This document shows, piece after piece, positions 2,597 through 39,458 of a stretch of 47,079 nucleotides of DNA; within the stretch, counting starts at the first letter, position 1, and each line of letters starts with the position of its first letter. The translations under genes were made by a program, and so were the position numbers. The stretch is taken from positions 1-47,079 of the forward strand of contig CANOFW010000025.1 in the NCBI GenBank assembly GCA_947565425.1, given 5' to 3'. The notes under the pieces are model-generated. The model ran no database searches. It saw only the letters and a list, made by a program, of their open reading frames with translations, and had not been told where the DNA came from. The DNA comes from an uncultured Lachnospiraceae bacterium (GTDB lineage: Bacteria; Bacillota; Clostridia; Lachnospirales; Lachnospiraceae).

Positions 2597-2678
2597 TGAT
2601 AATATTACACACCTAATTTATCTTTATTGCAACCTAATCATAAGCGACTGCCTTTGACGGCAGAATGATTTATACGAT

Positions 2679-2728
2679 AAAAGCAGTTACAAACTACTGG
2701 AAATTCCTTATTTTGTAACTGCTTTTTT
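2679..2728. terminator. Bidirectional intrinsic terminator
   Basis: AAAAGCAGTTACAAA (2679-2693) pairs perfectly with TTTGTAACTGCTTTT (2712-2726) around an 18-nt loop, with T-runs at the 3' side on either strand. It sits between two convergent genes, the coiled-coil gene ending at 2596 and fumB ending at 2754, and can end both transcripts. Confidence 0.9.
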
Positions 2729-2753
2729 ATGTTTAAATCTTCGTATATGTGCG

Positions 2754-3302
2754 CTATCTGATGTATGCCTGGGCTGCTGTTTTATAGAGGTCATTCCCCT
2801 CTGCATCTACTACTACAATAACAGGAAAATTCTCCACTTCCAATCTCAGCACAGCTTCCGCCCCCAAATCTCCATAGCAGACAAGTTCCGATTTCTTAAT
2901 ACATTTAGACAACAACGCTCCCGCGCCGCCGACTGCCGCAAAATAAACGGCTTGATTGCGGACAATGGCTTCAATGACTTCCTGCGTCCGCTTGCCTTTG
3001 CCAATCATAGCCTTCTGCCCCAAATCCAAAAGCCGGGGCGCATATTTATCCATACGGCTTGCCGTGGTCGGTCCCGCGGAACCAATCGGGCGCCCCTCTC
3101 TTGCCGGCGAAGGACCCATATAATAAATCGCCGCATCCTTTATAGGAAATGGTAATTCTTCTCCCTGGTCCAAAACATCCATAAAACGTTTATGCGCTGC
3201 ATCTCTGGCAACATAAATCGTACCGGAAATATATACATAATCGCCTGCGTGAAGGTCTTTTGTAACTTCAGCTGTAATCGGTGTTAAAATATGACTGTCC
3301 AT
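2754..3302 (-). CDS. fumB: Class I fumarate hydratase, beta subunit
   Basis: A 182-residue protein matching the C-terminal (beta) half of iron-sulfur fumarases and L-tartrate dehydratases, which are split into two subunits in many anaerobes. Characteristic blocks are the GDYVYISGTIYVARDAAHKR region near the N-terminus, the YMGPSPAREGRPIGSAGPTT block, and GKGKRTQEV. With the alpha subunit it interconverts fumarate and malate in the cytoplasm. It begins 21 nt after the alpha gene with a good GGGAGG ribosome-binding site. The symbol is by subunit role; a tartrate dehydratase (ttdB) cannot be excluded from sequence alone, although gene context gives no hint of tartrate use. Confidence 0.9.
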   Translation of the reverse strand: MDSHILTPITAEVTKDLHAGDYVYISGTIYVARDAAHKRFMDVLDQGEELPFPIKDAAIYYMGPSPAREGRPIGSAGPTTASRMDKYAPRLLDLGQKAMIGKGKRTQEVIEAIVRNQAVYFAAVGGAGALLSKCIKKSELVCYGDLGAEAVLRLEVENFPVIVVVDAEGNDLYKTAAQAYIR

Positions 3303-3323
3303 ACGATATGCCTCCCATCCCCT

Positions 3324-4169
3324 CTAAATTTCCCGCACAACATGCCTATTTACATGGCAGCAAATATTAACGGCAACCGGAAGTCCTGCAATGTGGGTAG
3401 GGTATGTATTGATATTGACAGCAAGTGCCGTGATCGTCCCGCCAAGCCCTCCGGGTCCAATGCCGAGCTGATTAATGGCTTGCAGCATTTCTTCTTCCAA
3501 TTCCCGTATATAAGGGATCTGTGAATATCCGTCCACTGGACGGAGCAACGCCTGCTTTGCGAGCAGCGCACACTTTTCAAACGTGCCGCCAATCCCTACT
3601 CCCACAACCATTGGTGGGCATGCGTTCGGACCTGCATCTTCCACAGCAGTCAGAATCGCCCTCTTTACGCCTTGTATTCCATCCGCTGGCTTGAGCATAA
3701 AGACACGACTCATGTTCTCACTGCCAAAACCTTTGGGAGCCAGCGTAAGCTTAACTTGATCTCCTGCAACAAGCGAATAATGGATGACTGCCGGCGTGTT
3801 ATCATTTGTATTTTCCCTGAGAATGGGATCGCCCACTACAGATTTGCGCAGAAAACCATCTCTATAACCCTGGCAAACCCCCTCATTAATGGCATCTTCC
3901 AGAACTCCTCCCTGAAAATGAACTTCCTGTCCAACCTCTACAAAAACTACAGCCATTCCCGTGTCCTGGCAGATAGGTATCATTTCATCGCCTGCAATCA
4001 CAAGGTTCTCTTCAAGCTGGCACAGTATTTTCTTCCCCAAAGGGGACTGTTCCGCATCCGCTGCTTCTTTCAATGCCTTTCCCATATCCAGCGAAAGGTA
4101 ATGATTTGCTTCTATGCACATTTCACGGATATTTGCTGTTATTTCTTCTGTCGAAATCGTACGAATCAT
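3324..4169 (-). CDS. fumA: Class I fumarate hydratase, alpha subunit
   Basis: A 281-residue alpha subunit of the oxygen-sensitive [4Fe-4S] fumarase. Three cysteines fit the cluster ligands: C67 in ICQDTG, C184 in PNACPP and C200 in FEKC. The GPGGLGG loop follows in the last quarter. An in-frame extension back to 4283 would overlap the cyclase gene by almost 100 bp; the ATG at 4169 has a strong AAGGAG nine bases upstream and gives the usual N-terminus MIRTIS. The gene starts 16 bp after the diguanylate cyclase stop codon, so the three genes probably form one transcript. The enzyme may serve fumarate respiration or a reductive TCA branch. Tartrate dehydratase is the alternative reading. Confidence 0.92.
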   Translation of the reverse strand: MIRTISTEEITANIREMCIEANHYLSLDMGKALKEAADAEQSPLGKKILCQLEENLVIAGDEMIPICQDTGMAVVFVEVGQEVHFQGGVLEDAINEGVCQGYRDGFLRKSVVGDPILRENTNDNTPAVIHYSLVAGDQVKLTLAPKGFGSENMSRVFMLKPADGIQGVKRAILTAVEDAGPNACPPMVVGVGIGGTFEKCALLAKQALLRPVDGYSQIPYIRELEEEMLQAINQLGIGPGGLGGTITALAVNINTYPTHIAGLPVAVNICCHVNRHVVREI

Positions 4170-4185
4170 CGTATTCTCCTTAACT

Positions 4186-5277
4186 TCAAAATTTCTGGTC
4201 CCAGTATACACGGTTCCTGCCTTTCTCTTTGGCATGATAAAGCGCGTGATCTGCCGCCTTGACGGATTTCTCAAAGTCACCATTATATTTTACGACACCT
4301 GCGGAAATATGAAATCCTACAGCAGTCTCTTTCGACGCTGCAATCTTTTTGCGGATTTCTTCTGCCTTTTTGTATGCATTTTCCGGCGGACATCCTGGCA
4401 AAATAATAAGAAACTCCTCTCCGCCAAAACGAATAACCGTTCCGCTCTTAGGAATTTCTTGCATCAGTGTTCTGCCCAGATAATGAAGCACCTGATCCCC
4501 CACATAATGACCGTGAGTATCATTGACGGCTTTAAAATAGTCAACATCCAACATTATGATAGAGATCATCTCCTCCTCGCTGATTATCTGATTGTCCTCA
4601 ATGAGTTGGTTCATCCGATGACGATTATACACGGTAGTCAACGGGTCCGTAATCAATGCAAGTTCCAATTTCTTCGATGTCAGATAACGCTCGAACTCTC
4701 CCAGGTTAAGAATGCAATGGACAAGCATAATTGCTGCAAAACAGGGAAAATTGAGCGATAAAATTACATCCAGGTTCTCGTAATGGTTGAATGGGTGCGA
4801 CACTAATATTTCCGCAAAAAATACGCCATAGCCAAACGCCCCGAAACACGGTCTCGCACCTAAACAACAAATCAAGAAAATAAAATTTAAAATCGTGGCA
4901 CCTTCGCTGAAATGCGTTTTAATCTCTAGGTGATATACCGACCAGATTGTCGCAAATACAATGAGATTCAGCAATAGATAATTTAAAAATGCTTTCCATT
5001 TATAACTTTTTACCTTAGGTTCCAGCACAATATAAAGAAACATCGGAACTAAGATGGATGTGCGGGGAATCAACGTCGGCATTATCGTATGCCCATTTAA
5101 TTGATAATCCGATACAAGATAACTGAGTGACGCAAGGCTAGCCAAAATAAGAATCAATTTCACAAAGAACTGGTAGTAATCACATTTATATTGATAAAAA
5201 TTGCGCTTCTCCTGCCAATCCATGTCTTTATATATGTGGTATAGCTCTAAAATATGCACAACATTGTAATTTTTCAC
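4186..5277 (-). CDS. Membrane-anchored diguanylate cyclase (GGDEF)
   Basis: A 363-residue protein. The N-terminal half (residues about 33-200) has around six hydrophobic segments and no recognisable ligand-binding domain. The C-terminal GGDEF domain (about 205-363) keeps the active-site motif GGEEF at 285-289 and the metal/GTP-binding MLDVDYFKAVNDTHGH stretch. It should therefore make cyclic di-GMP from two GTP. The product-inhibition site RxxD, expected just before GGEEF, is absent (PKSG instead). Translation starts at GTG, 5277, behind AGGGGGCG. A consensus promoter lies 50 bp upstream. Fumarase genes follow in the same operon, an unusual pairing. Confidence 0.9.
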   Translation of the reverse strand: MKNYNVVHILELYHIYKDMDWQEKRNFYQYKCDYYQFFVKLILILASLASLSYLVSDYQLNGHTIMPTLIPRTSILVPMFLYIVLEPKVKSYKWKAFLNYLLLNLIVFATIWSVYHLEIKTHFSEGATILNFIFLICCLGARPCFGAFGYGVFFAEILVSHPFNHYENLDVILSLNFPCFAAIMLVHCILNLGEFERYLTSKKLELALITDPLTTVYNRHRMNQLIEDNQIISEEEMISIIMLDVDYFKAVNDTHGHYVGDQVLHYLGRTLMQEIPKSGTVIRFGGEEFLIILPGCPPENAYKKAEEIRKKIAASKETAVGFHISAGVVKYNGDFEKSVKAADHALYHAKEKGRNRVYWDQKF

Positions 5278-18746: not shown

Positions 18747-18770
18747 GTGTCCACCACCTTGTATAATAAT

Positions 18771-18804
18771 GTACCGGCACGCGACGCTCTGCGTCACCTG
18801 CCAT
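18771..18804 (-). repeat. Intercistronic hairpin family B, copy 1 (before atpC)
   Basis: On the minus strand GGCAGGTGACGC and GCGTCGCGTGCC form a 12-position stem with one G-G mismatch and an AGA loop, ending about 24 bp before the atpC start codon. A second copy with compensating base changes precedes atpE (24421-24454). It is read as RNA structure, perhaps for mRNA processing or to set translation rates; this role is inference. Confidence 0.7.
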
Positions 18805-18810
18805 TTCGTC

Positions 18811-18847
18811 GGAAGGCATTCCAGAAATGCTCCGCATTTGCCTTCCT
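18811..18847 (-). repeat. Hairpin in the atpD-atpC gap
   Basis: GGAAGGCA... (18811-18818) pairs with ...TGCCTTCC (18839-18846), and AAATG pairs with CATTT inside it. It starts right at the stop codon of atpD. There is no U-tract, so it is probably a stabilising or processing stem and not a terminator. Confidence 0.6.
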
Positions 18848-18848
18848 C

Positions 18849-20273
<1,425 letters not shown>

Positions 20274-28421: not shown

Positions 28422-28694
28422 TCAGTAAAGCATTCCATGCTGCGCTAATCGTTCTGCCATCTGCCCCGCATACATCAGGAGCAGCCCTATTGCGACGCCG
28501 ATAATGATAGCTTTTGCCGTCCTGGGTTTTTTCTTTATCCAGACAAAAAACAGAATAATGCCGATAAAAGGCAAAAAGCAGCCGAGAAGCCCCCACCCAA
28601 ATCCTCCTTTGTCTTTCTCTACCGGCGTCCCGCAATTGGGACAGATCGTCGCCTCCTCCCTCAGTTCTTTTCCACAATTTTTACATACAGTCAT
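28422..28694 (-). CDS. Zinc-ribbon membrane protein (second copy)
   Basis: A 90-residue protein. The first 25 residues form a zinc ribbon (C-x2-C in VCKNCGKE, then C-x2-C in ICPNCGTPV), followed by two hydrophobic helices (WGLLGCFLPFIGIILFFVW and IIIGVAIGLLLMYAG) separated by a KKKPRTAK loop. It is paralogous to the gene at 28774-29046. Such proteins often dock cytoplasmic factors to the membrane; here they end the operon that holds a kinase and a secretion ATPase. A binding partner is not known. Confidence 0.8.
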   Translation of the reverse strand: MTVCKNCGKELREEATICPNCGTPVEKDKGGFGWGLLGCFLPFIGIILFFVWIKKKPRTAKAIIIGVAIGLLLMYAGQMAERLAQHGMLY

Positions 28695-28773
28695 TTTTTC
28701 CTCCCAAAAATATAGCGTTGTTTCTTGCGTATCAAATCATTGATTTTGCATATAGATCCTTATCTGCATCCCC

Positions 28774-29046
28774 CTATGTCACGGCTCCGCTGCCGAGTGC
28801 AATAAATAGAATAATATAGGATAAAACCAGAATACACACAGCAAGCAAAGCGCCGAGTCCGGCTGCCTTTGCGGACTTGGGCTTCTCATCCTTCCATATC
28901 AGGTAGAGGACAAGCCCGACAACGGGGATACAGCAGCCGAGGATCCCCCAGGCAAATCCCCCTTCGCCCGCCACGGGCGTCCCGCAATTGGGACAGGTAA
29001 CCGCCTGATCGCCGAGCTCTTTTCCACAATTTCTACATATAGCCAT
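28774..29046 (-). CDS. Zinc-ribbon membrane protein (first copy)
   Basis: A 90-residue protein built like its neighbour at 28422: zinc ribbon with ICRNCGKEL and TCPNCGTPV, a Gly-rich hinge, then two membrane helices (WGILGCCIPVVGLVLYLIW and ALLAVCILVLSYIILFIAL). The ATG at 29046 is preferred; it matches the paralogue's N-terminus and has GGAAGG in front. It follows the kinase gene by 55 bp. Duplication of a small zinc-ribbon protein after a kinase suggests a scaffold at the membrane, though that is inference. Confidence 0.8.
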   Translation of the reverse strand: MAICRNCGKELGDQAVTCPNCGTPVAGEGGFAWGILGCCIPVVGLVLYLIWKDEKPKSAKAAGLGALLAVCILVLSYIILFIALGSGAVT

Positions 29047-29101
29047 TCTACTTTCCTTCCTTTCAAACACATCTCTTTACTCTTTCTATCCATAAGCCTT
29101 G

Positions 29102-31168
29102 TTAAAGTTTGCTGATATCCACCCAGATTGCCGGGCGTACGCCGTAACATTCATTGATCATCGGCGGAAAAAATCCGACATTGCCCACCGGCAATGCGAC
29201 TAACGCCTTCCTTTTCTTTCTGTTCACGGAGCGCAGCCACCAACTGACGGCTTCATCCTTCTTTGTAAATATCTTTATCTTCTGCCGCGCATACTCCGTC
29301 GCGCTTGCCCGGTACTGTTCTTCTGTAAAATGATACTGCTCCTCAATTTCTTCCAGGCTTAAACAGAATACCTTATCCCAAGTCTCCACCAGGTCATCAA
29401 TTTTGGTCTTATTTTTATAGTCTGCATTCTCCAGCCTCACAGCGTACAGCGCGTTCTGCTCCGCCTCTGTGAACGAACAACGTATAAAATCGTCATTCAG
29501 CCATTCACGCAAGTCGCTTACACTCCAGGTTGCTTTCTGCTTTCCATCTTCATGAAAACACCTGTAATCCAGTACATACCGGCTCAATAGCAAACATAGA
29601 TCGTCATTTCTCTTAATCACCTCCCATTCAATCGGCGTCTTTTCTTTTTTATCCTCCTCCTGATAATAAGCGCCAAATCTGACAAACTCTTTCTCTATAA
29701 ACTCGCTTACGTCCGATACACTCGCGTTTAATTGATCTGTATCCGGCGTTCCTGCATCTGATTCGCCATTGTTTGCCGAAACGTTTCGCGCCCCTCCATT
29801 TTGGAGCGGTTCCGCTTCACCTGCCGGGCTTTTACCGGACGGTTTTTCTTCCTCTGCCGTGCTTTCGCCGGGCAGTTTCTCCGGGAAAGCATGGTATGTA
29901 TCTTCGCTCAAGGATTCCCGCGCTGAAATCTCCCCGCCGTCGGTTGGCGTCGATGAAAATGCATGGTATGTCTTTTCCTCCCGAAATCCCTGGGTCGCGT
30001 TAAAAGATTCCTGCGATAGGACCTGATGGTTGGGCGGAATCTTGGAATCCTGCTGCAAACCTGCGTCTTTATGCGTTCCTGAATCCTCCAGCTGATTAGC
30101 GTCCTTCTGCGTCTCCAAATCATCCGGCAGACCTACGTCCTTCAGTGTTGGGGGATCGTTCGGATTCTCTGTGTCTGGCGTTATTTCGTTACCGGATAAA
30201 TTCAGATTAAGACGCCCATCCTGACGCGGCATATCCGTCTTTTCATCATGGAACTTCTTTGCCAACTGCCATTTTAACAAATCCCCCTTCATCTCCGCAG
30301 CGTTCTGGTAACGATCCTTTGCTCTATAAGCGCAGGCCTTCCTCACAATGTAGGTGAGCGTCTCGTCCCCGTCTGCAGGCGGCTCTAACGCGTTCCCGCT
30401 GATCAGGCAATGTATCGCTTTTTCCAGATCTCCGGAGCGTATCGGCTTGGGCGCCTCGGGCAGAAAAGGAATCCGCCCCTTGTTCAGGAATCGGTACAGG
30501 GTAATCCCCAAGGAATAGATATCTACCGTATTGTCATAAGATTCCCCACGGTAAATCTCCGGCGCCATATACATACGCGTTCCTTTCTGCGAACGCATAC
30601 TCTGGGTTCCCTCCATCTGTTTGGAAATCCCAAAATCACCCAGCTTATAGCCGCCATATGGGTTACGGAAAATATTGCCCGGCTTTATGTCGCGATGGAT
30701 CGTGCGGCTCTGCTCGCAGCACTCTAACGCACTGCAGATGTCAATTCCCATTTTCACTGTTTCCGTCACATCTAAGATACCGTTTTTCTGCACATAAGCG
30801 TCAAGGCTTTCCAGCAGCTCCATGCGGATATAGAGCGTCCACCCCAGCTTTCCCGCATCTTCCACAAACACGCAGTCCTCAATAGAGACGATATTGCCCG
30901 CTGTCTTCAGACGCTCCATAATCTTAATTTCATTGACAAGGCCGTTCAGCACATCTTCATAGTAAATGCGGATGGACTGGGCGTCCATTCCCGTATTCTG
31001 AAGCTCTATCACCTCTGTCTCGTCCTGCGGGATACGGATCACCTTCACTGCCGCATAATATTCCCCGCCGAAATCTTCTTTCAGCACCTTATATACATTT
31101 CCAAAGGAGCCTTTCCCAAGAAGCCCCGCCGTCTTCCATTTTGGCCAGATTTTCGTAATTTCGTCCAT
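29102..31168 (-). CDS. Hanks-type Ser/Thr kinase fused to a DUF6273-like domain
   Basis: A 688-residue cytoplasmic protein. The kinase domain (about 10-325) keeps all catalytic motifs: GKGSFG (18-23), K42 in AAVKV, E80, HRDIKPGN (158-165), DFG (178-180) and APE (202-204), so it should be active. A disordered Ser/Pro/Glu-rich linker (about 335-500) follows, then a C-terminal domain with WSVSDLREWLND, EAVSWWLRSV and YGVRPAIWVDI blocks that match DUF6273. There is no transmembrane helix, unlike PknB-type receptors. It starts four bases after the PP2C gene ends. It probably phosphorylates proteins read by the FHA domain of the nearby ATPase. Unlike EssB, whose kinase-like domain is dead, this kinase is intact. 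Confidence 0.92.
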   Translation of the reverse strand: MDEITKIWPKWKTAGLLGKGSFGNVYKVLKEDFGGEYYAAVKVIRIPQDETEVIELQNTGMDAQSIRIYYEDVLNGLVNEIKIMERLKTAGNIVSIEDCVFVEDAGKLGWTLYIRMELLESLDAYVQKNGILDVTETVKMGIDICSALECCEQSRTIHRDIKPGNIFRNPYGGYKLGDFGISKQMEGTQSMRSQKGTRMYMAPEIYRGESYDNTVDIYSLGITLYRFLNKGRIPFLPEAPKPIRSGDLEKAIHCLISGNALEPPADGDETLTYIVRKACAYRAKDRYQNAAEMKGDLLKWQLAKKFHDEKTDMPRQDGRLNLNLSGNEITPDTENPNDPPTLKDVGLPDDLETQKDANQLEDSGTHKDAGLQQDSKIPPNHQVLSQESFNATQGFREEKTYHAFSSTPTDGGEISARESLSEDTYHAFPEKLPGESTAEEEKPSGKSPAGEAEPLQNGGARNVSANNGESDAGTPDTDQLNASVSDVSEFIEKEFVRFGAYYQEEDKKEKTPIEWEVIKRNDDLCLLLSRYVLDYRCFHEDGKQKATWSVSDLREWLNDDFIRCSFTEAEQNALYAVRLENADYKNKTKIDDLVETWDKVFCLSLEEIEEQYHFTEEQYRASATEYARQKIKIFTKKDEAVSWWLRSVNRKKRKALVALPVGNVGFFPPMINECYGVRPAIWVDISKL

Positions 31169-31172
31169 TTCC

Positions 31173-32030
31173 TCATTTCTCCCTTTGTGCCAGCCCGGCG
31201 CGCGGCAAAAAGGCCATCCCCGCCGTCTGCTGCTTTGATTCCCGTCCCATTTCAATCAGAAGAACCGTCACATTATCACGGCCGCCATGCTCCAGCGCTT
31301 TCTGTATCAGAAGCTCCGCCCTCTCAGGCAGGTCTATTTTCTTGGATAATAATTCGCTGATTTCCTCCTCCGATACCATGTCGGTCAGCCCATCGCTGCA
31401 TATCAGATACAAATCCTTCTGCTTCGCCTCCATGCTGGAAATAAACGGCTCAACGATTACTTCCTCTTCGCTGATGCCCAGAAACTGCGTAAGCCCCGGC
31501 TTGCGGCCGGTGATTCCCATCCGCTTCAATTCTTCCGCATTGGTATGTGCTTTCCCCAGCATCATAAGCTCTCCCTGCCGAAAACAGTAAATCGGGCTGT
31601 CTCCCAAATTGCATACCCATACCGTATCATTCTCAAACGCCAGCATGGACAGGGTCGTCCCTATTTCCTGATACTGCTGGAGGCATCCGGCTTGGTATAC
31701 CTCTCTGTTTATGCAGCGCACCAGCTCCGTCAAACCTTCCTTCGTCGGCAAAAGTTCCCGGCAGCGTTCTGCAAGCTGCGCCGCCGCCGTGTAAGACGCC
31801 AGCTCTCCTCCGCGCAGCCCGCCCATCCCATCGAATACAGCGTATGCCATACAGCCCTCAAGGGGCTGGTAGAGCACATAGGCGTCGTCCATGGACTGGT
31901 GGTTTTGAGGCAGATAATACCCTCGAAACGTAAAATTATCTTCATTATGCGCGCGTACCTTCCCGGTGTCGGACAGGCATACCGCCCTTATGGCCATGCC
32001 GGACTTGCCGAACTTGTTACGAAATCTCAT
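31173..32030 (-). CDS. PP2C-family protein phosphatase
   Basis: A 285-residue metal-dependent phosphatase. Metal- and phosphate-binding motifs are in place: SDTGKVRAHNEDNF (about 21-34), VFDGMGG (about 83-89), GDSPIY, ICSDGLTD and GGRDNVTVLLIEMG. The ATG at 32030 has AAAGG nine bases upstream; an ATG three codons earlier sits directly on that site. The gene lies four bases before the kinase gene, so the two are a matched on/off pair, presumably setting phosphorylation of FHA ligands or of the secretion ATPase. Confidence 0.94.
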   Translation of the reverse strand: MRFRNKFGKSGMAIRAVCLSDTGKVRAHNEDNFTFRGYYLPQNHQSMDDAYVLYQPLEGCMAYAVFDGMGGLRGGELASYTAAAQLAERCRELLPTKEGLTELVRCINREVYQAGCLQQYQEIGTTLSMLAFENDTVWVCNLGDSPIYCFRQGELMMLGKAHTNAEELKRMGITGRKPGLTQFLGISEEEVIVEPFISSMEAKQKDLYLICSDGLTDMVSEEEISELLSKKIDLPERAELLIQKALEHGGRDNVTVLLIEMGRESKQQTAGMAFLPRAGLAQREK

Positions 32031-32169
32031 AATCCGCATCCTTTCCCAAATACCCGAAATGGGGCTATTGGAAAATAAAAGACTTTATTTTCCAATAGCT
32101 CCCAGCTTTTACAAAAGTTCCATCTGTTATTATCTATACACGGCCAATGAAATCTGCCGCACCGTAAAA

Positions 32170-32421
32170 TTACATAATAACTAAGTGATCCCCGTTTTCT
32201 ATCCCATAATCCTTTAACGCCGCCTTGCCTTTGAGCAGGAGCCTCTTTTCCTTCAGGCAGAGAAATTCATGGCCTGACGAAACATAATGGTAGTCAGACA
32301 ATTCTTCCAGCGCTTTCCCGATTAAGGAAGCCACCATACCGACGCTCAGAAAGCCGGGAATATATACGTCATAACTTGCCGAAATAGAAGGACACTCTAA
32401 GGATACCAATATTTTTTCCAT
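32170..32421 (-). CDS. YukD/EsaB-like ubiquitin-fold protein
   Basis: An 83-residue protein whose pattern fits the small ubiquitin-like proteins YukD/EsaB of type VIIb secretion: an N-terminal beta strand (ILVSLECP), a helix (SVGMVASLIGKALEEL), and a closing KGKAALKDYGIENGDHLVIM motif. It has no diglycine tail, so conjugation is not expected. The ATG at 32421 has a better-placed GGGTG than the GTG at 32430. It lies between the lipoprotein and the phosphatase and supports calling the operon T7SS-like. EsaB-type proteins regulate substrate export by an unknown mechanism. Confidence 0.78.
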   Translation of the reverse strand: MEKILVSLECPSISASYDVYIPGFLSVGMVASLIGKALEELSDYHYVSSGHEFLCLKEKRLLLKGKAALKDYGIENGDHLVIM

Positions 32422-32450
32422 GCTATTCACCCGTCCTCATCTTCCTCGCT

Positions 32451-33269
32451 TTAATCTGACGCCGGGGTAAATACGCTGTTTTTGATATCGCTTGTGTCCG
32501 TTCTCTCGCTCATACCTTCCAAAGACGCCTCCCAGGCAGCCAGGCCTTCTGTATCGCTTTCTAATCCAACATACATAATACTGACACATCCGCGCGTGCC
32601 CTCTGCTTTTTCAAATATCATATCAGATCCCATAACTACTGATACTCCTGCAATATCTGCTTTTGCCACGCATTTTATCGCCTTATACTGACCGACTTTT
32701 GTCTCATTATATGAGATCACTTCTTTCACTTCCGCATTTTCGTTTCCACTGAAACTTTCCTGCATACCTTCAAGGAAAGCCGCTTTATTCGCCTCCGGGT
32801 CAGAACTATATTCCCCCGCCATAGGCACCATTTGAAAAACAATGGTAGGGGTAACCCCTTGATCTGCCCTATCGTTTGCAAAAAAGCGCGGCGTAGAAGA
32901 TGTTTCTGTTTCACCGTCTACCTCATAGCCATCCGGCAATGTAATTGTAATCGGTCCGTAAGATACTGTCTGCCCGTCAATTGTCGCAGCGCTGAACGGA
33001 CTCCACAGATCCTCATGTTCTGCGTCTGCATCGCTGCCCTCTTCCTCCGATAAGCCTGCGTCTGCATCGCTGTCCTCTTCCTCCGATAAGTCTGCGTCGG
33101 TATCGCTGTCCTCTGCATCAGAAAGCTCCGTATCTGCGTCGGCGCCTTCGGACATATTGCCGCCGGTATTCGACGCTGTATCGGAAGAACCGTTTTTCCC
33201 GCACCCGGCCAGCAGAACCACCAACAACGCTGCCATTATAAAAGCCATACATTTTTTATTCTTTTTCAT
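32451..33269 (-). CDS. Lipoprotein with acidic 12-residue repeats
   Basis: A 272-residue lipoprotein: MKKNKKCMAFIMAALLVVLLAGC carries the lipobox LAGC. After the lipid anchor comes an acidic tandem-repeat linker (SDADAGLSEEE-like units, about residues 45-90), then a globular domain of about 170 residues (TIDGQTVSYGPITITLPDGYEV ... YVGLESDTEGLAAWEASLEGMSERT). I do not recognise the fold; similar domains occur in clostridial envelope proteins. The start codon stands 12 bases after GGAGG. It is likely an outer-face component of the secretion apparatus, with the repeat acting as spacer through the cell wall. Confidence 0.78.
   Translation of the reverse strand: MKKNKKCMAFIMAALLVVLLAGCGKNGSSDTASNTGGNMSEGADADTELSDAEDSDTDADLSEEEDSDADAGLSEEEGSDADAEHEDLWSPFSAATIDGQTVSYGPITITLPDGYEVDGETETSSTPRFFANDRADQGVTPTIVFQMVPMAGEYSSDPEANKAAFLEGMQESFSGNENAEVKEVISYNETKVGQYKAIKCVAKADIAGVSVVMGSDMIFEKAEGTRGCVSIMYVGLESDTEGLAAWEASLEGMSERTDTSDIKNSVFTPASD
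33021..33128 (-). repeat. 36-bp tandem repeat in the lipoprotein gene
   Basis: Three 36-bp units stand in tandem: 33021-33056, 33057-33092 and 33093-33128. The first two differ at two positions; the third is more diverged. Each unit encodes 12 residues of the acidic linker. In-frame units can be gained or lost by slippage, which would vary linker length between strains. Confidence 0.85.
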
Positions 33270-33323
33270 TTCTTTTCATTTCCTCCCATGCTCCATGACC
33301 AAACCGCCGTGTTTTCCGGCAAT

Positions 33324-33614
33324 TCAGCCATGGAGCTGATTAAGCTGTACTTCTAAGTCGTCTAATATTCTTTGATTCTCATTCACGATTTTTCGGAAAC
33401 CGTACACCATATCCTCCAGAAACTCTATCCTCCATGAGATGCTCTTCTCCAGCTTTTCCAGCCTTTCCATGCATTCTCGATACATATCCATGCTGTAATC
33501 CGGATTGAAAGACAGAAGCTCCACCGTTTCCTTCAGGGACACCGCCTTCCTTTTTTCTTCCTCCAGCAGCATAATGTGGCGTTGGATTCCTGCAAAGCTT
33601 AGTCCAATATACAT
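33324..33614 (-). CDS. Small helical protein, WXG100-like candidate
   Basis: A 96-residue, wholly helical protein with charged heptads (LLEEEKRKAVSLKETVELL and IVNENQRILDDLEVQLNQLHG) and a central tryptophan in KSISWRIEFLED. Size, helical hairpin layout and position in a secretion-ATPase operon fit the ESAT-6/WXG100-like or DUF5082/DUF3130 helper group, but there is no clear WXG motif. It starts seven bases after the previous gene with only a weak AAGGG site, so it is probably translated by coupling. It may be a substrate or chaperone of the ATPase. Confidence 0.6.
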   Translation of the reverse strand: MYIGLSFAGIQRHIMLLEEEKRKAVSLKETVELLSFNPDYSMDMYRECMERLEKLEKSISWRIEFLEDMVYGFRKIVNENQRILDDLEVQLNQLHG

Positions 33615-33621
33615 GGACGGA

Positions 33622-34002
33622 TCAGCCCTTGATTGCTAAATTGCTAACCAGAGACTGCGCTTCATCCAAAAGCCCGCTCGCCATGGATTTCTGCTGATCC
33701 ATTTCATCTACTACGCCCTTATATAAAATCCTTAAATTCATTACCCTGTCGGAAGCAGATTTTACCTGAAAAATAGATTTATCTATGATTTTCAATGCTT
33801 TTTCTCCCTCATCATCTTCCCAAAATTCCGGTATCTGAGATTTTAAGCCTTCCAATTCCGCCAGATGCTGCTCTAACTTAGTGTTATATCCTTCCAATTC
33901 TGTAATCTTTTCTTCATATTGCTTTTTTGTATAATGCAGCATCGCGGACACTCCGAGCTTACCCGCCGCTAATCCTACGCCAATTGCTGTCGCTAATGCC
34001 AT
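33622..34002 (-). CDS. Coiled-coil protein with WXG-like motif, T7SS-type candidate
   Basis: A 126-residue protein. A short hydrophobic N-terminus (ALATAIGVGLAAGKLGVSAML) leads into a coiled coil (KQYEEKITELEGYNTKLEQ...), a turn containing PEFWEDDEGEKAL and a second helical half. W-x-(2-5)-G followed by a helix is the WXG100 hairpin signature in a relaxed form. It is longer than typical WXG100 proteins (about 100 residues). Strong GGGAGGG ribosome-binding site. A secreted substrate or a structural partner of the EssC-type ATPase is likely, but not proven. Confidence 0.6.
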   Translation of the reverse strand: MALATAIGVGLAAGKLGVSAMLHYTKKQYEEKITELEGYNTKLEQHLAELEGLKSQIPEFWEDDEGEKALKIIDKSIFQVKSASDRVMNLRILYKGVVDEMDQQKSMASGLLDEAQSLVSNLAIKG

Positions 34003-34018
34003 ATCTGTTTCCCTCCCT

Positions 34019-34324
34019 TTATCTTCCTATTTTATCTTTATATTCCTTAATAGCTTCTACGCTCTTCTGGATACCCGACCCAATCGTCTGTATTGCCGAT
34101 CCAATATTCTCCAATACATCGTCAAATGTTTTCGTAAGGGTATTCCAACTTTCGCTCAGTTTCTGTCCAGTATCTACAATTTCACTTATAATTGGATCAT
34201 CCTCTACAGGATCCCTTTGGCAACATTCTGAAACTTCTTTCAGCAACACCTTGACTTCCGCCAATTCACCTTTTACTTCCGCCTGCCAAGACTGGGCACG
34301 CGCAACATTAATATTTAAATCCAT
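34019..34324 (-). CDS. WXG100-like small helical protein
   Basis: A 101-residue protein of the right size for the ESAT-6/WXG100 superfamily: two helices around a central SESWNTLTKTF, and a C-terminal helix with small residues (NIGSAIQTIGSGIQKSVEAIKEYKD), a pattern that often forms the export signal. No strict WXG. GGAAGGAG lies in front of the ATG. Member of the small-protein run directly downstream of the secretion ATPase gene. Confidence 0.65.
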   Translation of the reverse strand: MDLNINVARAQSWQAEVKGELAEVKVLLKEVSECCQRDPVEDDPIISEIVDTGQKLSESWNTLTKTFDDVLENIGSAIQTIGSGIQKSVEAIKEYKDKIGR

Positions 34325-34356
34325 AATCTGATCTCCTTCCTATTCCAGCCTAACAG

Positions 34357-34551
34357 TTACCTGGCTGTCCTTAACCTGCTTTCCACATCCCGCAGCAATT
34401 CCTTTTCACGTTCCAACAATCCTTTATATTCATCAAATATATCGCCTTTTAATGATTTCGATATCTCCGCACAGTCCTCCTCCAGTAATGCAAGCAATTT
34501 CCTGCACTGTGCCATGCTGTCTTCTATGCGGTTAGCATCATAGCCTTCCAT
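34357..34551 (-). CDS. Small helical protein downstream of the secretion ATPase
   Basis: A 64-residue protein, entirely helical and highly charged, with a likely two-helix hairpin (MAQCRKLLALLEEDCAEISKSL then EYKGLLEREKELLRDVESRL in separate helices). It lacks a tryptophan motif. It has a strong AAAGGAGG site and follows the ATPase gene by 46 bp. Small helical partner proteins next to T7SS substrates are common, and it could play that part, but I do not recognise a family. Confidence 0.55.
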   Translation of the reverse strand: MEGYDANRIEDSMAQCRKLLALLEEDCAEISKSLKGDIFDEYKGLLEREKELLRDVESRLRTAR

Positions 34552-34597
34552 TGCGGAACCTCCTTTGGGGCATCATCCCCTTTCTTGAAATCTGCTC

Positions 34598-37500
34598 TCA
34601 TGCCTCCTTTTCAAAAATATTTATATCATCTTCATTCTCAGCCTGCACCGGCAATTCCCCGCAGGGCATTAAAATGGGATATATTTCCTCACGGTATTTC
34701 ATCAGACACCGGTTATAAGCGCACGGTTTATCCATTTGCCGGTATTCCTTGGGAAGGGCGGCAAGCGTCTGCTTGCTGAACTGCCCGCCGAACAGCATGA
34801 ACAGCTCGTCCGGATTGAAGGCGGCATACAACGGATAACCCATGGCTTTTTCATCCGGGTAAAAGCATCCAACCACATAGACATTGTACTGCCTCGCCAA
34901 TTTGAATATTTCACGGAACACCTCATCCGTGGCTTCCTCACTGATTTTGCATACATCAACAAAGCTTTCAAACAACAGCAGCTTTGCCGTCGTATACTCG
35001 TGCATATGATAAAAAGTATCTTTATAAATATCTGTCCTGGCGGCGTCAAGCCCCCGTTCCTTGCAGTATTCTATCAGCAGCTCCCTGCGCACCATCAGGT
35101 CGTCGACAAGATCTCTCCATAGCTGGACCAGATTCTCCGGCGTGAGTTCAATATAGTCCGCCTCATACTCCTGCCCGTGGAAACAACTGTTGTCCTTGCG
35201 CTTTACCACCGTTATTTCCATGGACTGCGCCTGCGCCGCAGCAAGGAAATTGCCGAGCACGGGCTCCACCCCTTGCGGATTGCCAAAATACAGCGAAAGC
35301 ATGGAAAACTGTTTGAACGGCAGCGCAATGGGCTTACCGCTTTCCAGGGAATATCCGAGCGGAATACGGTCTTTTTTGAACCGCTCCATAAACTCCTGGT
35401 AAGTCTCTGTCTCCGACACGGATGGAAACCCTTTTGCCGCGGCATGGCCCTTATATTTTTCACAGATGGAACGGACGTCCTGTTTCATGCGCTGGATCCT
35501 GTCCTTGTCCTCCATGTCCGGGTAGTACTTTGCGACCTGTATTTCCAAGGGAACGCCGTCAAACAGCGCCATTCCCCTTCCGGGCATTTCCGGCGGCACA
35601 TAACTGCACCGGCATCCTAAAGCTTCCCCATACTCATAGCGGTCTTTTAAGTGCAGGCTGATCCTGTCTCCCAATTCCTGCTTCATACGCAGGGAACTTT
35701 CGTTCAAATGGCTGCTTGTGATAATGTATTTAATGCCGTAATTAGGACCTGCTTTTAAGTACTCCTGAAATTTAAAATAGTGCTGCTCCCCCGCTTTCAG
35801 CCCGTTCAATCCTGCAATATTATCCACAAACACCAGAATCAGCGGGATTGGCCGGACGGCATTTGCCGCGCTGTAACTGTTGACCTCCAATTCAGTAAAA
35901 AGCGTTTTACGCTTTGCCACAATTTCATTGATGATTTGAAAGAAGGCGTCCAGGGAGCTTTCCTCCTCTTCCCCCAAGACGGCGCCGCAATGGGGCAGCG
36001 GCTTAAATATGTTCATCAGCCTGCTTGAGTAATCCAGTATATAAAAATTTACTTCTTCCGGCGAATAACGCCTGGCCAGCGAGAGGATCACCGTTTGCAG
36101 GAGCGTCGTTTTCCCGCTTCCAGGCTGTCCGGCCACAAGCAGGTTCCTGCAGTTTGGGACATCAAATATCAGCGGGAACTGCTTTTGGTTTTCCGGGTCG
36201 TCCGCAAGCCCAATACTTACACAGACCGGGCATCCTTTGCCGTCATGGACGCTGGTATTTAGGGAATCGGCATCCAACTGCCGGGCAAGGGCCTCCTTCC
36301 AGAGCTGTCTGGGGGCAATCCCAAGCTCAACCGCCAGATCAGACAGCCGCTGCACAATCTCTACCAATTGCGTTTTTCCAGTATTGACCCGGGTCGGCTC
36401 CGGCTTTGCCGCATATATGGTCTGCCCGACCGCGTCAATAAACTGTATCGACTCATCTTTCTGGACGACCACTTCGTCCTGCGGCTCATACGGAGCGCCG
36501 CTCCATGCGGACTGCCCCATGGCAAAGAATTCATTATAGCCGACCTGCAAGTAGAATCTGCCCGTCTCTTTCAGCTCAGCCGCCTCCGGCCTGTTCAGCA
36601 TATCCATGCTGTCCGCCCGGTCCTGGACTTTCAGGCAGACCCTGAACTTTGTATTGCTGCGGATCTGGTCATTGACCACCCCGGCAGGCTTCTGCGTCGC
36701 CAAAATCAGATGGACTCCTAAGCTTCTCCCGATTCGCGCAATACTGATCAACTGCTCCATGAATTCCGGCTCCTGCTGCTTTAATTCTGCAAATTCATCG
36801 GAAATGATGAACAGATGCGGCAACGGCTCTTCCACAATATGCTGCCGGTAAAGCTTCTGGTATTCATAGATATCCATCGTGCCCTCATTACTAATGCTCT
36901 TTGCCTCATTGAAGATTCGCTGCCGCCGCTTGAGCTCACTCTGGATGGAAATCAGTGATCTCTGGATTGCCGGCCCATCAAGGTTCGTGATCGTGCCCAC
37001 CAGATGGGGCAGATGGATATTCCTTGCCTTGTCGTCAAATGCGCCGGCGAGGCCGCCGCCCTTGTAATCAATTAAGATAAACGCCACTTCATTGGGATTA
37101 TAATTGATTGCCATGGACAAGATATAGGTAAGGATAAATTCACTCTTCCCCGAACCGGTCATGCCGGCGACCAGGCCATGCGGCCCTTCATATTTCTGGT
37201 GAAGGTCCAGTTCAAAAAGCGAGCCGTCCGTCGCAATCCCGACGGGCGTCGCCAACGACTTGACAGGATTGCTTTCCTGCCAGCGCTTCACCGGATTGAG
37301 ATGGTCGATTTTGCCAACCCCGAACATCTCAAGGAACGTCAGCGTCTTGGGCAGGGAATACGCCTGAGTGACCAGTTTCAGGCTGGTATTGGCAAGCGTT
37401 TTCATGCTTTTTACAGATTCCATATAATCGTAGCCATCCGCCACGAAATCTTCCGCGCCGCGCTCTATCTCATTAAGATAAGTCACCGTGTTTGTGCCTG

Positions 37501-39238
37501 AGTCTTTTATGTCAAATAATTGGAAACATTCTTTGGGAAGGCCGTCAAACGCTGCTATGATGCTTATGCCGCAGGTCTTTTCCGACTGCATGGCTTCCTT
37601 CAGCACTTCCATGCTGTCAAAGATCCGTTTATTCAGCGCAAACACGACATAATAGGGACGCTCCCTCAATATTTCTTTTAAATCCCGCGGCTTAGGCAGA
37701 TCTGTTTCCAGTTCTTTTTTTAGGTAATCGCTAATCTGGTATCCCTCTCCGTTATCTGTGACGATAAACCGGGTGACTTTTTGGTCGTCCCATGCATGGG
37801 GGAGATACTTGATGAACTCCAGTTTCCGTAAATCTTCTTTTTCCAGCAGGAATATGGTCTTGACTTCATCATAGCTGTGCAGGATTGTAATCTGCAAAAT
37901 GAGGATTCTTATAAAATCAATCATCTTCTCCCGCCCTCCCATGACGCCGCAGACAAAATTCTGCGTGATGGAAGTGATAATAGGCGCTTGCTCTAAATAA
38001 ACGGGCTGCTCCGTCATGTCATACATCTGCTCTTCCAACTCATCCCTGTCCATTTGGAACCGCTTATCTGGATATTTCACTTCCGCCATCAGGGGAATCC
38101 TTCCGGAACCCAGGCGAATGTCCAAGAAATCATCGTCCACTTTGCGCCTTTCCCATAAGCGGGAACGTTCTTCCGTATAGGAGAGTATCTTTCGTATATC
38201 CGGATAATTTTTATTTAAAATTTCCTGCTCGCGCCTTTTCTCGGCATGGATTTCTTCTTTCTTTTCCGTTAAATATTTTGTGTAACTTTCCACGCGCCGT
38301 TCTTCATATTCCTTTTTCTCCTTATCCGTGTATTTCTGTGTCAGCAAAGGGAACAGCACCGAAGACAGCAGAGTCGTATAATGCCCGGTCAGCGCCGCCG
38401 AGCCGCCCATAACCATGGAGCCACCCATGCGCAGCAACAGAGGGATCTTGTTGGAATTCAAAGACATCGGCGGACCTTCGACGATAAGATCTTTGGGCGA
38501 CAATGCATTGCGTTTCCTTGGCATCCTGTTAAACAGCGGAGCGGCAAGGACTGCCCCCTCCCTCGGCTGCATCGCCATCCCCTCTGCCGGAGCCTCAATA
38601 TAGTGCAGATTCCGGTCGGATACGCGTACCCTGTCGTTGCAGTCATTGATGGAAAGGAAACCGATTCCGATAATAATGCGCAGCCCAAGGATATATATGG
38701 TGTCCCCGACCTCCAGAAACGCTTCCCTGACGTTCTGGCCATTGACATAAATCCCATTGACGCTGTTATGATCCCTGATCTTCCACAAACCATTGACAAA
38801 CTGCAAGGTTGCATGCCTGCGTGATACGAACGGATTAGTATATACAATATCGTTATCCACAGCGCGCCCGATTTCCACCCTGGCCGTCGGCAATATAAAA
38901 TAGTTGTGAAAAACGGAATGGTCTTTTTTCCTAGTTTCTACATAAATTGCGCCTTTATAATTCTCTGTTTCAAACTGGAACAGGATCAGATCCGACAATT
39001 CTACCGTACTGCACATCTGTCCCTTTAGCTTGAAAAAAGCGGGGGATATGGCATATGCGTACCATTTACCCTCATATGCCTCAATGCAGAATCCCTCTTT
39101 TATTTCCTTCGTACAATCCTCAAAACAATACCTTCCGCGGGGGACAGCCGGAATCCAAAGGGAACTCATCGCCCCGGATTCCATCATCAAAACAACCTGC
39201 GTACCCGTATCTGATGTAAATTCAAAATTGTTGTCCAT
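34598..39238 (-). CDS. essC: FHA-domain EssC-type secretion ATPase (FtsK/SpoIIIE family)
   Basis: A 1546-residue protein. An N-terminal region of about 100 residues may be a first degenerate FHA fold; a clear FHA domain follows (about 118-195) with GR at 124-125, SRRH at 139-142 and NSVNGIYVNG. One or two membrane helices lie near 268-300. Then three FtsK/SpoIIIE-type ATPase domains come: first with Walker A GMTGSGKS (692-699) and Walker B ILIDYKGGG (721-729), second with GQPGSGKT (1037-1044) and YILDYSS, and a third C-terminal one whose P-loop is degenerate (YFGNPQG). This layout is that of EssC/YukBA, the motor of type VIIb secretion. The ATG follows AGGAG. It heads an operon with small helical proteins, a YukD-like protein, a phosphatase and a kinase. 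No EsaA, EssA or EssB gene is seen nearby. Confidence 0.9.
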   Translation of the reverse strand: MDNNFEFTSDTGTQVVLMMESGAMSSLWIPAVPRGRYCFEDCTKEIKEGFCIEAYEGKWYAYAISPAFFKLKGQMCSTVELSDLILFQFETENYKGAIYVETRKKDHSVFHNYFILPTARVEIGRAVDNDIVYTNPFVSRRHATLQFVNGLWKIRDHNSVNGIYVNGQNVREAFLEVGDTIYILGLRIIIGIGFLSINDCNDRVRVSDRNLHYIEAPAEGMAMQPREGAVLAAPLFNRMPRKRNALSPKDLIVEGPPMSLNSNKIPLLLRMGGSMVMGGSAALTGHYTTLLSSVLFPLLTQKYTDKEKKEYEERRVESYTKYLTEKKEEIHAEKRREQEILNKNYPDIRKILSYTEERSRLWERRKVDDDFLDIRLGSGRIPLMAEVKYPDKRFQMDRDELEEQMYDMTEQPVYLEQAPIITSITQNFVCGVMGGREKMIDFIRILILQITILHSYDEVKTIFLLEKEDLRKLEFIKYLPHAWDDQKVTRFIVTDNGEGYQISDYLKKELETDLPKPRDLKEILRERPYYVVFALNKRIFDSMEVLKEAMQSEKTCGISIIAAFDGLPKECFQLFDIKDSGTNTVTYLNEIERGAEDFVADGYDYMESVKSMKTLANTSLKLVTQAYSLPKTLTFLEMFGVGKIDHLNPVKRWQESNPVKSLATPVGIATDGSLFELDLHQKYEGPHGLVAGMTGSGKSEFILTYILSMAINYNPNEVAFILIDYKGGGLAGAFDDKARNIHLPHLVGTITNLDGPAIQRSLISIQSELKRRQRIFNEAKSISNEGTMDIYEYQKLYRQHIVEEPLPHLFIISDEFAELKQQEPEFMEQLISIARIGRSLGVHLILATQKPAGVVNDQIRSNTKFRVCLKVQDRADSMDMLNRPEAAELKETGRFYLQVGYNEFFAMGQSAWSGAPYEPQDEVVVQKDESIQFIDAVGQTIYAAKPEPTRVNTGKTQLVEIVQRLSDLAVELGIAPRQLWKEALARQLDADSLNTSVHDGKGCPVCVSIGLADDPENQKQFPLIFDVPNCRNLLVAGQPGSGKTTLLQTVILSLARRYSPEEVNFYILDYSSRLMNIFKPLPHCGAVLGEEEESSLDAFFQIINEIVAKRKTLFTELEVNSYSAANAVRPIPLILVFVDNIAGLNGLKAGEQHYFKFQEYLKAGPNYGIKYIITSSHLNESSLRMKQELGDRISLHLKDRYEYGEALGCRCSYVPPEMPGRGMALFDGVPLEIQVAKYYPDMEDKDRIQRMKQDVRSICEKYKGHAAAKGFPSVSETETYQEFMERFKKDRIPLGYSLESGKPIALPFKQFSMLSLYFGNPQGVEPVLGNFLAAAQAQSMEITVVKRKDNSCFHGQEYEADYIELTPENLVQLWRDLVDDLMVRRELLIEYCKERGLDAARTDIYKDTFYHMHEYTTAKLLLFESFVDVCKISEEATDEVFREIFKLARQYNVYVVGCFYPDEKAMGYPLYAAFNPDELFMLFGGQFSKQTLAALPKEYRQMDKPCAYNRCLMKYREEIYPILMPCGELPVQAENEDDINIFEKEA

Positions 39239-39257: not shown

Positions 39258-39281
39258 TATCAAAAAGTGTACTTTTTGATA
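39258..39281. promoter_or_regulatory. 24-bp palindrome, copy 1 (next to the ATPase start)
   Basis: The arms TATCAAAAAGT (39258-39268) and ACTTTTTGATA (39271-39281) are perfectly complementary around GT. It lies 20 bp upstream of the ATPase start codon, directly before the ribosome-binding site. Either a repressor operator or, as RNA, a hairpin next to the Shine-Dalgarno. The second copy is 177 bp away. Confidence 0.75.
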
Positions 39282-39434
39282 TTTGTCCTTTTCACATTAT
39301 TTACAGCATTTTTTACACAATTTGAAAGAAAAATTACAGAAATACTGTAGAATTTACGGCCGAAACCTATAAAAACAAAGAAATTTGTTGCTTTGCCACC
39401 GAATTTATAGTAAAATTTCCCATGAGAAAAGAAC

Positions 39435-39458
39435 TATCAAAAAGTACACTTTTTGATA
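39435..39458. promoter_or_regulatory. 24-bp palindrome, copy 2
   Basis: Arms TATCAAAAAGT (39435-39445) and ACTTTTTGATA (39448-39458), identical to copy 1 except that the centre is AC instead of GT; here the symmetry extends two bases further on each side to 39433-39460. Centre-to-centre distance to copy 1 is 177 bp, about 17 helical turns, which would suit a loop formed by one regulator bound at both sites. Confidence 0.75.

What the first reader, a model, noticed from the sequence alone, without database searches (positions are those of the whole stretch)
28422..39238. Type VII secretion-like operon with a built-in kinase/phosphatase/FHA switch and no EsaA/EssA/EssB
One minus-strand operon encodes an EssC-type ATPase with an FHA domain, four small helical proteins (two or three WXG100-like), a lipoprotein, a YukD/EsaB-like protein, an intact PP2C phosphatase, an intact Hanks kinase and two zinc-ribbon membrane proteins. 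Known T7SSb operons have EsaA, EssA and EssB; EssB/YukC has a kinase-like fold that is a pseudokinase. Here a soluble, catalytically complete kinase is present and those three are missing. A kinase, phosphatase and FHA trio controls type VI secretion (PpkA/PppA/Fha), so a similar phosphorylation switch on a type VII motor is a plausible new variant.
Basis: partly seen in the sequence, partly recalled or inferred. Interest (0 to 1): 0.85.

Follow-up and report, generated by a model that had tools for sequence, protein, structure and literature searches.

The report
Flip-switch type VII secretion variant
A bacterium carries a variant protein-export machine with its own kinase, phosphatase and phosphate-reading motor, and the DNA in front of it looks like a small promoter that a recombinase can flip, which would let single cells switch the machine on and off.

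Summary
The operon is real. EssC (906 bits to the NCBIfam EssC model) has an FHA domain with its phosphopeptide-binding residues. It is followed by four small helical proteins, a lipoprotein, a YukD-like protein, an intact PP2C, an intact kinase without a membrane helix, and two zinc-ribbon membrane proteins. EsaA, EssA and EssB gave no match in the 92.9%-complete genome. A second essC, on another contig, sits in a different, T7SSe/j-like locus.

The kinase/phosphatase/FHA idea is not new: Garrett et al. 2024 (PMC11217815) describe it for T7SSe and T7SSj. This EssC nevertheless forms its own clade (5 loci, 100/100), the operon lacks hallmarks of T7SSb/c/e/j, and no protein matches Pfam WXG100.

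The new element lies upstream. Two 24-bp near-palindromes, exact reverse complements with opposite GT/AC cores, 177 bp apart, flank the essC promoter region. The only other site found in the genome (2 mismatches) lies 7 bp past a serine recombinase gene. Among 76 relatives of that recombinase, 4 have a similar site within 400 bp 3' of the gene (0 of 73 more distant stretches), and 5 have inverted pairs there (0 of 76 shuffles). Best reading: a phase-variable T7SS variant with an invertible promoter. Inversion itself was not observed.

The parts
39435..39458 (.). distal 24-bp near-palindromic site (core AC on + strand)
39282..39434 (.). 153-bp segment between the sites: putative invertible promoter region of the operon
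   Evidence: weak sigma-70-like matches in both orientations; state not determinable
39258..39281 (.). proximal 24-bp site (core GT on + strand), exact reverse complement of the distal one, 19 nt before the essC ATG with the ribosome site between
34598..39238 (-). EssC-type ATPase, 1546 aa: FHA (aa 122-183), short weak hydrophobic stretch (about aa 265-299), FtsK/SpoIIIE ATPase domains
34357..34551 (-). small protein, 64 aa; homologue after essC in L047 (E 1e-9) and weakly in L070
34019..34324 (-). small protein, 101 aa; homologue in L047 (E 4e-14) and weakly in L038
33622..34002 (-). small protein, 126 aa, W-x-D turn (WXG100-like); homologues in L047 and L070
33324..33614 (-). small protein, 96 aa; a 96-aa protein without a BLAST match sits in the same position in L070
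32451..33269 (-). lipoprotein, 272 aa (lipobox LLAGC), no family match
32170..32430 (-). YukD/EsaB-like protein, 86 aa
31173..32039 (-). PP2C/PPM phosphatase, 288 aa, metal-binding residues intact
29102..31168 (-). Hanks-type Ser/Thr kinase, intact, no membrane helix by hydropathy, C-terminal DUF6273 (ORF as listed extends to 31255)
28774..29046 (-). zinc-ribbon protein with two hydrophobic segments
28422..28694 (-). zinc-ribbon protein with two hydrophobic segments

Best explanation
The operon encodes a variant type VII secretion system from a small EssC clade that is not T7SSb and does not fit the T7SSc, e or j layouts. It is controlled at two levels. (1) On/off at the DNA level (inferred from anatomy and comparative evidence; inversion not observed). 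A 201-bp element bounded by two inverted 24-bp sites carries the promoter. A Hin/Mpi-like serine invertase, probably the one encoded on contig C37, flips it and so couples or uncouples transcription from essC. (2) Post-translational (inferred). In ON cells the soluble kinase phosphorylates itself or a partner. The phosphothreonine-binding FHA of EssC docks that partner in place of the EssB-pseudokinase/FHA contact of T7SSb, and the adjacent PP2C reverses it. EssC, with the YukD-like protein, would then export the small helical proteins. Shown: gene content, intact motifs, site geometry and genome-wide rarity, clade, and recombinase-site linkage in a minority of the recombinase's relatives. Not shown: inversion, phosphorylation, secretion.
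For: Operon and domains. Clade A is one group of 5 at 100/100 in a 29-row tree. No EssB/EsaA/EssA match in the genome. FHA phosphopeptide residues invariant in 7 of 7. Switch: two perfect copies in the window against 0.02 expected at up to 3 mismatches. Genome-wide only one further site, 2 mismatches, and 0 for the backward control. The two copies are exact reverse complements with GT/AC cores. The third site is 7 bp past the end of a 202-aa serine recombinase gene (Pfam Resolvase 91.4 bits). Recombinase relatives in IMG/VR: 5 of 76 testable loci have an inverted pair of at least 21/24, all 11-317 bp 3' of the matched gene stretch, against 0 of 76 shuffles. In three of these (L115, L118, L120) a ribosome-like site and an ATG follow the second site. 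4 of 76 have a 24-mer 20/24 identical to the window site within 400 bp 3' of the gene, against 0 of 73 stretches 1.2-1.6 kb away, where the best is 17.
Against: No sequence showing the opposite orientation was available. No strong sigma-70 promoter stands out in either orientation. The C37 site has no partner nearby, and whether C37 carries the only recombinase of this kind in the genome was not tested. 71 of 76 recombinase loci show no such pair, and L134's pair does not resemble the window site (11/24). NCBIfam does not name the recombinase an invertase: best is XisF, 66 bits, and Mpi family, 35 bits, both far below cut-off. Of 14 other essC upstream regions scanned, only L065 had a pair (18/22), and 34 of 400 shuffles matched it, so no other T7SS locus supports the switch. 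No substrate was identified and no small protein in the operon matches WXG100.
Confidence: 0.62

Rival explanations
1. The 24-bp sites are operators of a dimeric transcription regulator (possibly looping over 177 bp), and the operon is an ordinary regulated T7SS variant without DNA inversion.
For: Near-perfect palindromes that straddle a promoter region are typical of operators; the arms of both copies are identical; inversion was not seen; most recombinase relatives lack such pairs.
Against: The only other genomic site found lies 7 bp past a serine recombinase gene, and some relatives of that recombinase carry the same kind of inverted site pair next to themselves. The asymmetric 2-bp core is oppositely oriented in the two copies, as inversion requires.
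Confidence: 0.22
2. The locus is simply a T7SSe- or T7SSj-like system already in print (Garrett et al. 2024), with components lost or shared with the second T7SS of the same genome.
For: Kinase, PPM phosphatase, YukD-like protein and phospho-competent FHA are shared; the window kinase domain is 45% identical to that of L055, whose EssC falls in the clade of the C10 system; the genome has a second, T7SSe/j-like locus.
Against: No DUF6382-FHA protein and no large I-type protein in the operon, and no WXG100 match; EssC clade separate at 100/100, although Garrett's own sequences could not be placed in the tree.
Confidence: 0.3
3. Not a secretion system: an EssC-derived soluble ATPase in a signalling or anti-phage module, since MADS has a kinase and an FtsK-like protein.
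For: Weak membrane hairpin, no WXG100 match, and PADLOC hits to mad8 (132 bits) and mad6 (165 bits).
Against: EssC scores 906 bits to the T7SS model, far above mad8; the small proteins keep their order after EssC in L047 and L070, and a YukD-like protein follows EssC in L038.
Confidence: 0.1

Closest known systems
T7SSe / T7SSj (Garrett, Higginson and Palmer 2024, PMC11217815; abstract, methods and two of three parts of the results seen, and passages)
   Same: EssC with phospho-competent FHA, Ser/Thr kinase, PPM phosphatase, YukD-like protein
   Different: No DUF6382-FHA J protein and no large I protein in the operon; kinase without a membrane helix; no WXG100 match; weak EssC hairpin; separate EssC clade
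T7SSb (Ess/Yuk)
   Same: EssC ATPase with FHA, YukD-like protein, small helical proteins
   Different: EsaA, EssA and EssB not found in the genome; FHA intact (the paper says the T7SSb FHA lacks the site); intact kinase and phosphatase present
Serine-invertase switches (Hin/hix, PMC4817059 passages; Mpi-controlled capsule promoters of Bacteroides fragilis, recalled)
   Same: Inverted, near-palindromic sites with an asymmetric core around a promoter-sized segment; serine recombinase in the genome
   Different: Would control a T7SS-type operon; segment only 201 bp; putative recombinase in trans on another contig; inversion not demonstrated
PpkA/PppA/Fha control of type VI secretion (recalled; a T6SS comparison is also made in PMC11217815)
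   Same: Kinase, phosphatase and FHA logic
   Different: Unrelated motor; analogy only

Membership tests
Type VII secretion system (broad sense) | EccC/EssC FtsK-family ATPase | tested here: met
   TIGR03928 906 bits over cut-off 778
Type VII secretion system (broad sense) | WXG100 (TsxA) protein at the locus | tested here: inconclusive
   No Pfam WXG100 match in the operon; genome WXG100 hits over the cut-off only at C10; 126-aa protein has a W-x-D turn and its L070 homologue scores 17.3 bits, below the cut-off
Type VII secretion system (broad sense) | Membrane-bound ATPase | tested here: inconclusive
   Hydrophobic stretch short and weak with conserved Arg in 5 of 5 clade-A EssC; numbers overlap a few non-A rows
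T7SSb | EsaA, EssA, EssB | tested here: not met
   0 matches in the own genome, 92.9% complete; B. subtilis control over the cut-off in each
T7SSc | ATPase without FHA; vWA protein TscE; EspG-like chaperone | tested here: not met
   FHA present; no vWA in the window operon, although one vWA protein lies downstream in L070; EspG fold not tested
T7SSe / T7SSj | DUF6382-FHA protein (J) and large I protein | tested here: not met
   None in the operon; DUF6382 was found by the same kind of scan in L065
T7SSe / T7SSj | EssC phylogenetic placement with the published TseC/TsjC | not tested
T7SSd, f, g, h, i | Their own component sets (PMC11217815) | not tested
   Not gone through feature by feature; T7SSf also has a DUF6382-FHA J protein, which the operon lacks
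Serine-invertase invertible promoter | Inverted site pair flanking the promoter region | tested here: met
   400 shuffles reach at most 17/22 against 22/22 observed
Serine-invertase invertible promoter | Cognate serine recombinase | tested here: inconclusive
   Linkage by the third site and by a minority of relatives; no activity test
Serine-invertase invertible promoter | Both orientations observed | not testable with these tools
   no reads and no close-strain DNA available

The most novel reading that the evidence does not exclude
A type VII-type secretion operon that is phase-variable by DNA inversion. A serine invertase acting in trans flips a 201-bp promoter element in front of an unusual EssC clade whose motor lacks a standard membrane hairpin and is gated by an active kinase/PP2C/FHA circuit, an arrangement resembling what the EssB-pseudokinase/EssC-FHA contact of T7SSb could have evolved from.
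Probability: 0.42. Interest if true: 0.78.

Novelty: new variant of a known kind. Interest (0 to 1): 0.62.

Why it matters
Type VII systems are known as contact weapons and virulence machines. A promoter flip would mean that single cells of a clone are either armed or not, which is directly testable by PCR on existing DNA. The intact kinase with an intact FHA, where T7SSb has a pseudokinase and an FHA without its binding site, also makes it possible to test how the EssB-EssC contact arose. The recombinase-site arrangement found in some relatives (site just 3' of the gene, promoter-sized segment, second site, ribosome site) gives a search pattern for other switched operons.

Tried and rejected
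Rejected: (a) MADS/anti-phage reading: PADLOC hits are much weaker than the EssC match. (b) Lipoprotein homologues in L052: low-complexity alignment only; nothing convincing in the PDB by sequence. (c) A switch upstream of essC in L065: 34 of 400 shuffles reach the score. (d) Plasmid or phage origin: plasmid matches are under 60% identity and cover under 80%; of 20 phage-labelled records one covers over 80%, an unverified fecal scaffold without annotation. (e) Structure of EssC 1-640 with a two-row alignment: mean pLDDT 34.7, not usable; no fold search was made. (f) The 126-aa profile against the PDB gave mostly designed helical bundles and coiled coils, no WXG100 protein. (g) viral-contig scans for EssC, PP2C, the EssC alignment and the site pattern gave nothing useful. 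(h) Paper searches with DUF6273, or Lachnospiraceae with kinase and phosphatase, gave 0 papers.

Rows dropped or chosen: before the tree L053 and L083 (incomplete) and L071 and L073 (near-copies of L052 and L072) were left out; G473 (L093), G018 and G021 fragments were never placed. In one search, L107 and L109 of the first 12 recombinase loci were not scanned; it also showed pairs of 20/24 in L105 (far downstream) and in L103/L104 (A/T-run pair 5' of the gene), which I do not count. In one search, 4 of 80 had too little 3' flank. One search used 39 of the 80 loci, picked by hand and including known positives; it is superseded on all 76 testable ones. Five of those 76 have a 400-bp flank identical to another.
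Full report
Observation. Domain assignments were checked with Pfam and NCBIfam. EssC passes the T7SS-specific EssC model at 906 bits. The FHA domain keeps the residues needed for phosphopeptide binding in 7 of 7 aligned EssC (which residues these are is recalled). The kinase has HRD, DFG and APE motifs, and the PP2C its metal-binding aspartates, in 5 of 5 aligned rows. By hydropathy the window kinase has no membrane segment; the truncated L047 kinase has none either, whereas the L038 kinase has one. Kinase tails differ: DUF6273 in the window, a DnaJ_C match at its cut-off in L047, a membrane helix in L038, PASTA in L051. The small proteins do not match WXG100. The 126-aa protein is the best WXG100-like candidate.

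What is missing, and what else the genome has. EssB, EsaA and EssA have no match in the 3.36-Mb, 92.9%-complete genome, while B. subtilis scores over the cut-off in each control. A second essC on contig C10 sits with a 2357-aa protein ending in a hydrophobic stretch, two kinase-like proteins with a membrane helix, a PP2C-like protein, FHA-like proteins, a LytTR-like regulator and a YukD-like protein (several of these names are my reading of the sequence). Five WXG100 proteins over the cut-off lie there. This resembles T7SSe/T7SSj of Garrett et al. 2024. So the genome has two non-b T7SS loci.

Relatives. Clade A consists of the window, L047 (G022, about 50% identity, same genus), L039 (G267, 52%, contig fragment), L070 (a human-fecal scaffold filed as phage, about 45% over the whole length) and L038 (MAG RUI442, 40%). 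They form one clade at 100/100 in a 29-row tree. The clade is rare at the cut-offs used. At E of at most 1e-200, 9 of 397 family genomes matched, own included: own and G267 are clade A, six fall in the neighbouring clade of the tree, and G385 was not placed. In the genus, own and G022 of 29 genomes carry a full-length match of 51% or more; fragments of 40-41% in G018 and G021 were not placed. Searches (order, 392 genomes; class, 391; relatives, 395; relatives of G267, 235), at E limits of 1e-220 to 1e-280, gave no further member that I could recognise; G473 was not placed. Gene order: essC-64-101-126 is shared by window and L047, where kinase and PP2C precede essC; L070 has an extra 379-aa protein similar to the EssC C-terminus after essC, then small genes in the same order and a vWA protein; L038 has essC-YukD-three small genes-kinase. 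In the neighbouring clade, L065 has DUF6382-FHA, two WXG100 proteins over the cut-off, PP2C and a membrane kinase. The kinase domain of the window is 45% identical to that of L055, which sits beside an EssC of another clade; this suggests a T7SS-linked kinase family.

EssC membrane hairpin. Between FHA and ATPase, clade A is about 23 residues shorter than L051, L065 and L049. It offers only two abutting 17-residue segments of low hydropathy, with an arginine conserved in 5 of 5. Among 27 non-A rows most have two clear segments with a loop, but a few (L052, L053, L071, L049) overlap clade A on one measure, so this is suggestive only. The structure prediction failed to give a usable model.

The switch. 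The promoter scan and the essC upstream sequence drew attention to two 24-bp near-palindromes at 39258-39281 and 39435-39458. Counts: 2 in the window against 0.02 expected; 400 shuffles of the 630-bp upstream region reach at most 17/22 where 22/22 is observed. The two copies are exact reverse complements of each other, so their GT/AC cores point in opposite directions. This is the geometry that lets a serine recombinase invert the DNA between two sites; with the hyperactive Hin-H107Y, inverted hixL sites give inversion and direct ones deletion in PMC4817059 (passages seen). Resemblance to the hix half-site is recalled, not tested. In the whole genome the pattern with up to 3 mismatches occurs once more, on C37, with 2 mismatches; the backward control has none. 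That third site lies 7 bp beyond the end of a 202-aa serine recombinase gene, between it and a flagellin gene that reads as separate N-terminal and C-terminal frames. NCBIfam gives only sub-cut-off matches for the recombinase (XisF 66 bits, Mpi family 35 bits). The site has no partner in the scanned stretch.

Test of the recombinase-site link. In a first set of 12 IMG/VR relatives plus 5 fetched records, 12 loci could be tested and 2 (L098 at 68% and L100 at 59% identity) have an inverted pair of 21/24 3' of the gene, with 0 of 40 shuffles each; 10 do not. Thirty control chunks of other loci and 40 shuffles gave none at 21/24. In a second, wider set of 80 (it re-includes L098 and L100 as L115 and L118, and other loci of the first set), 5 of 76 testable loci have such a pair, all 3' of the gene, against 0 of 76 shuffles. 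In L115 and L118 a called gene starts 28 and 25 bp after the second site; in L120 the printed sequence shows AAGGAGG and an ATG after it, although my simple gene caller chose other frames there; in L134 and L180 the next called main gene is further away. Scored on all 76 loci, the best 24-mer within 400 bp 3' of the gene is 20/24 identical to the window site in 4 (L115, L117, L120, L180), 18 in one and 16 or less in 71; in 73 stretches 1.2-1.6 kb away the best is 17. L118's sites are 14-15/24 and L134's 11/24. So the window pair belongs to a site family tied to part of this recombinase family. The step from there to 'the essC promoter inverts' is inference; neither orientation shows a strong sigma-70 promoter, so the present state cannot be read.

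Mechanism. Steps shown: genes, motifs, site geometry, rarity, linkage in a minority of relatives. Steps inferred: inversion turns the operon on or off; the kinase creates a phosphothreonine that the EssC FHA reads; PP2C resets it; EssC and the YukD-like protein export the small proteins; the lipoprotein and zinc-ribbon membrane proteins act at the envelope.

Known and new. Garrett et al. 2024 (PMC11217815; abstract, methods and two of three parts of the results read, plus passages) already report kinase, PPM phosphatase and phospho-competent FHA together in T7SSe and T7SSj, kinase and phosphatase without ATPase FHA in T7SSc, and phosphatase with FHA but no kinase in T7SSf, and draw the T6SS parallel. 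This locus does not fit the T7SSb, c, e or j layouts; the other subtypes were not gone through feature by feature, I could not place the published ATPases in my tree, and their supplements were not available. For an invertible promoter in front of a T7SS, searches of the held library found no precedent: 'invertible promoter' + 'type VII secretion' (one paper listed, on homopolymer-tract phase variants in M. tuberculosis, abstract start seen), 'inverton' + 'T7SS' (none), a mixed search on serine recombinases, phase variation and secretion (four papers, listing seen) and one on invertible promoters in gut Firmicutes (19 papers, 12 listed). Subscription papers are not covered. A gut-inverton survey (PMC11892184, passages) has 'secretion' only in one reference entry.

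Noticed in passing
   Followed up: yes
L097 (G000:C37) 4070-4678 and 2346-3774: Serine recombinase with a lone third site past its 3' end, followed by a flagellin gene that reads as separate N-terminal and C-terminal frames.
   Followed up: partly
L115, L118, L120, L134, L180 (IMG/VR contigs): Relatives of the recombinase carry inverted site pairs 3' of the gene, before other genes (an NRPS condensation-like protein in L118 by my reading), which suggests a wider family of recombinase-linked invertible promoters.
   Followed up: partly
L117, within 50 bp 3' of the recombinase match (ends 3085): Another relative (63% identity) has a single similar site (20/24) just 3' of the recombinase and no inverted partner at 21/24.
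   Followed up: no
G000:C10:48000-84000 (L006, L007): Second T7SS locus of the same genome, T7SSe/j-like, with five WXG100 proteins over the cut-off, two kinase-like membrane proteins and a 2357-aa envelope protein.
   Followed up: partly
L070 4860-5999: 379-aa protein similar to the EssC C-terminal part alone (31% over 296 aa), directly after a full-length essC.
   Followed up: no
L047 13-1110: T7SS-linked kinase (5' truncated) whose C-terminus matches DnaJ_C at its cut-off (26.6 bits).
   Followed up: no
window 28422-39238: Operon G+C 48.5% against 43.8% and 44.5% in the flanks, consistent with acquisition; distribution in the genus is patchy.
   Followed up: no
window 18766-18853: Rfam GA-cis RNA match (41.7 bits, above its gathering score), next to genes that read as ATP synthase subunits.
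   Followed up: no
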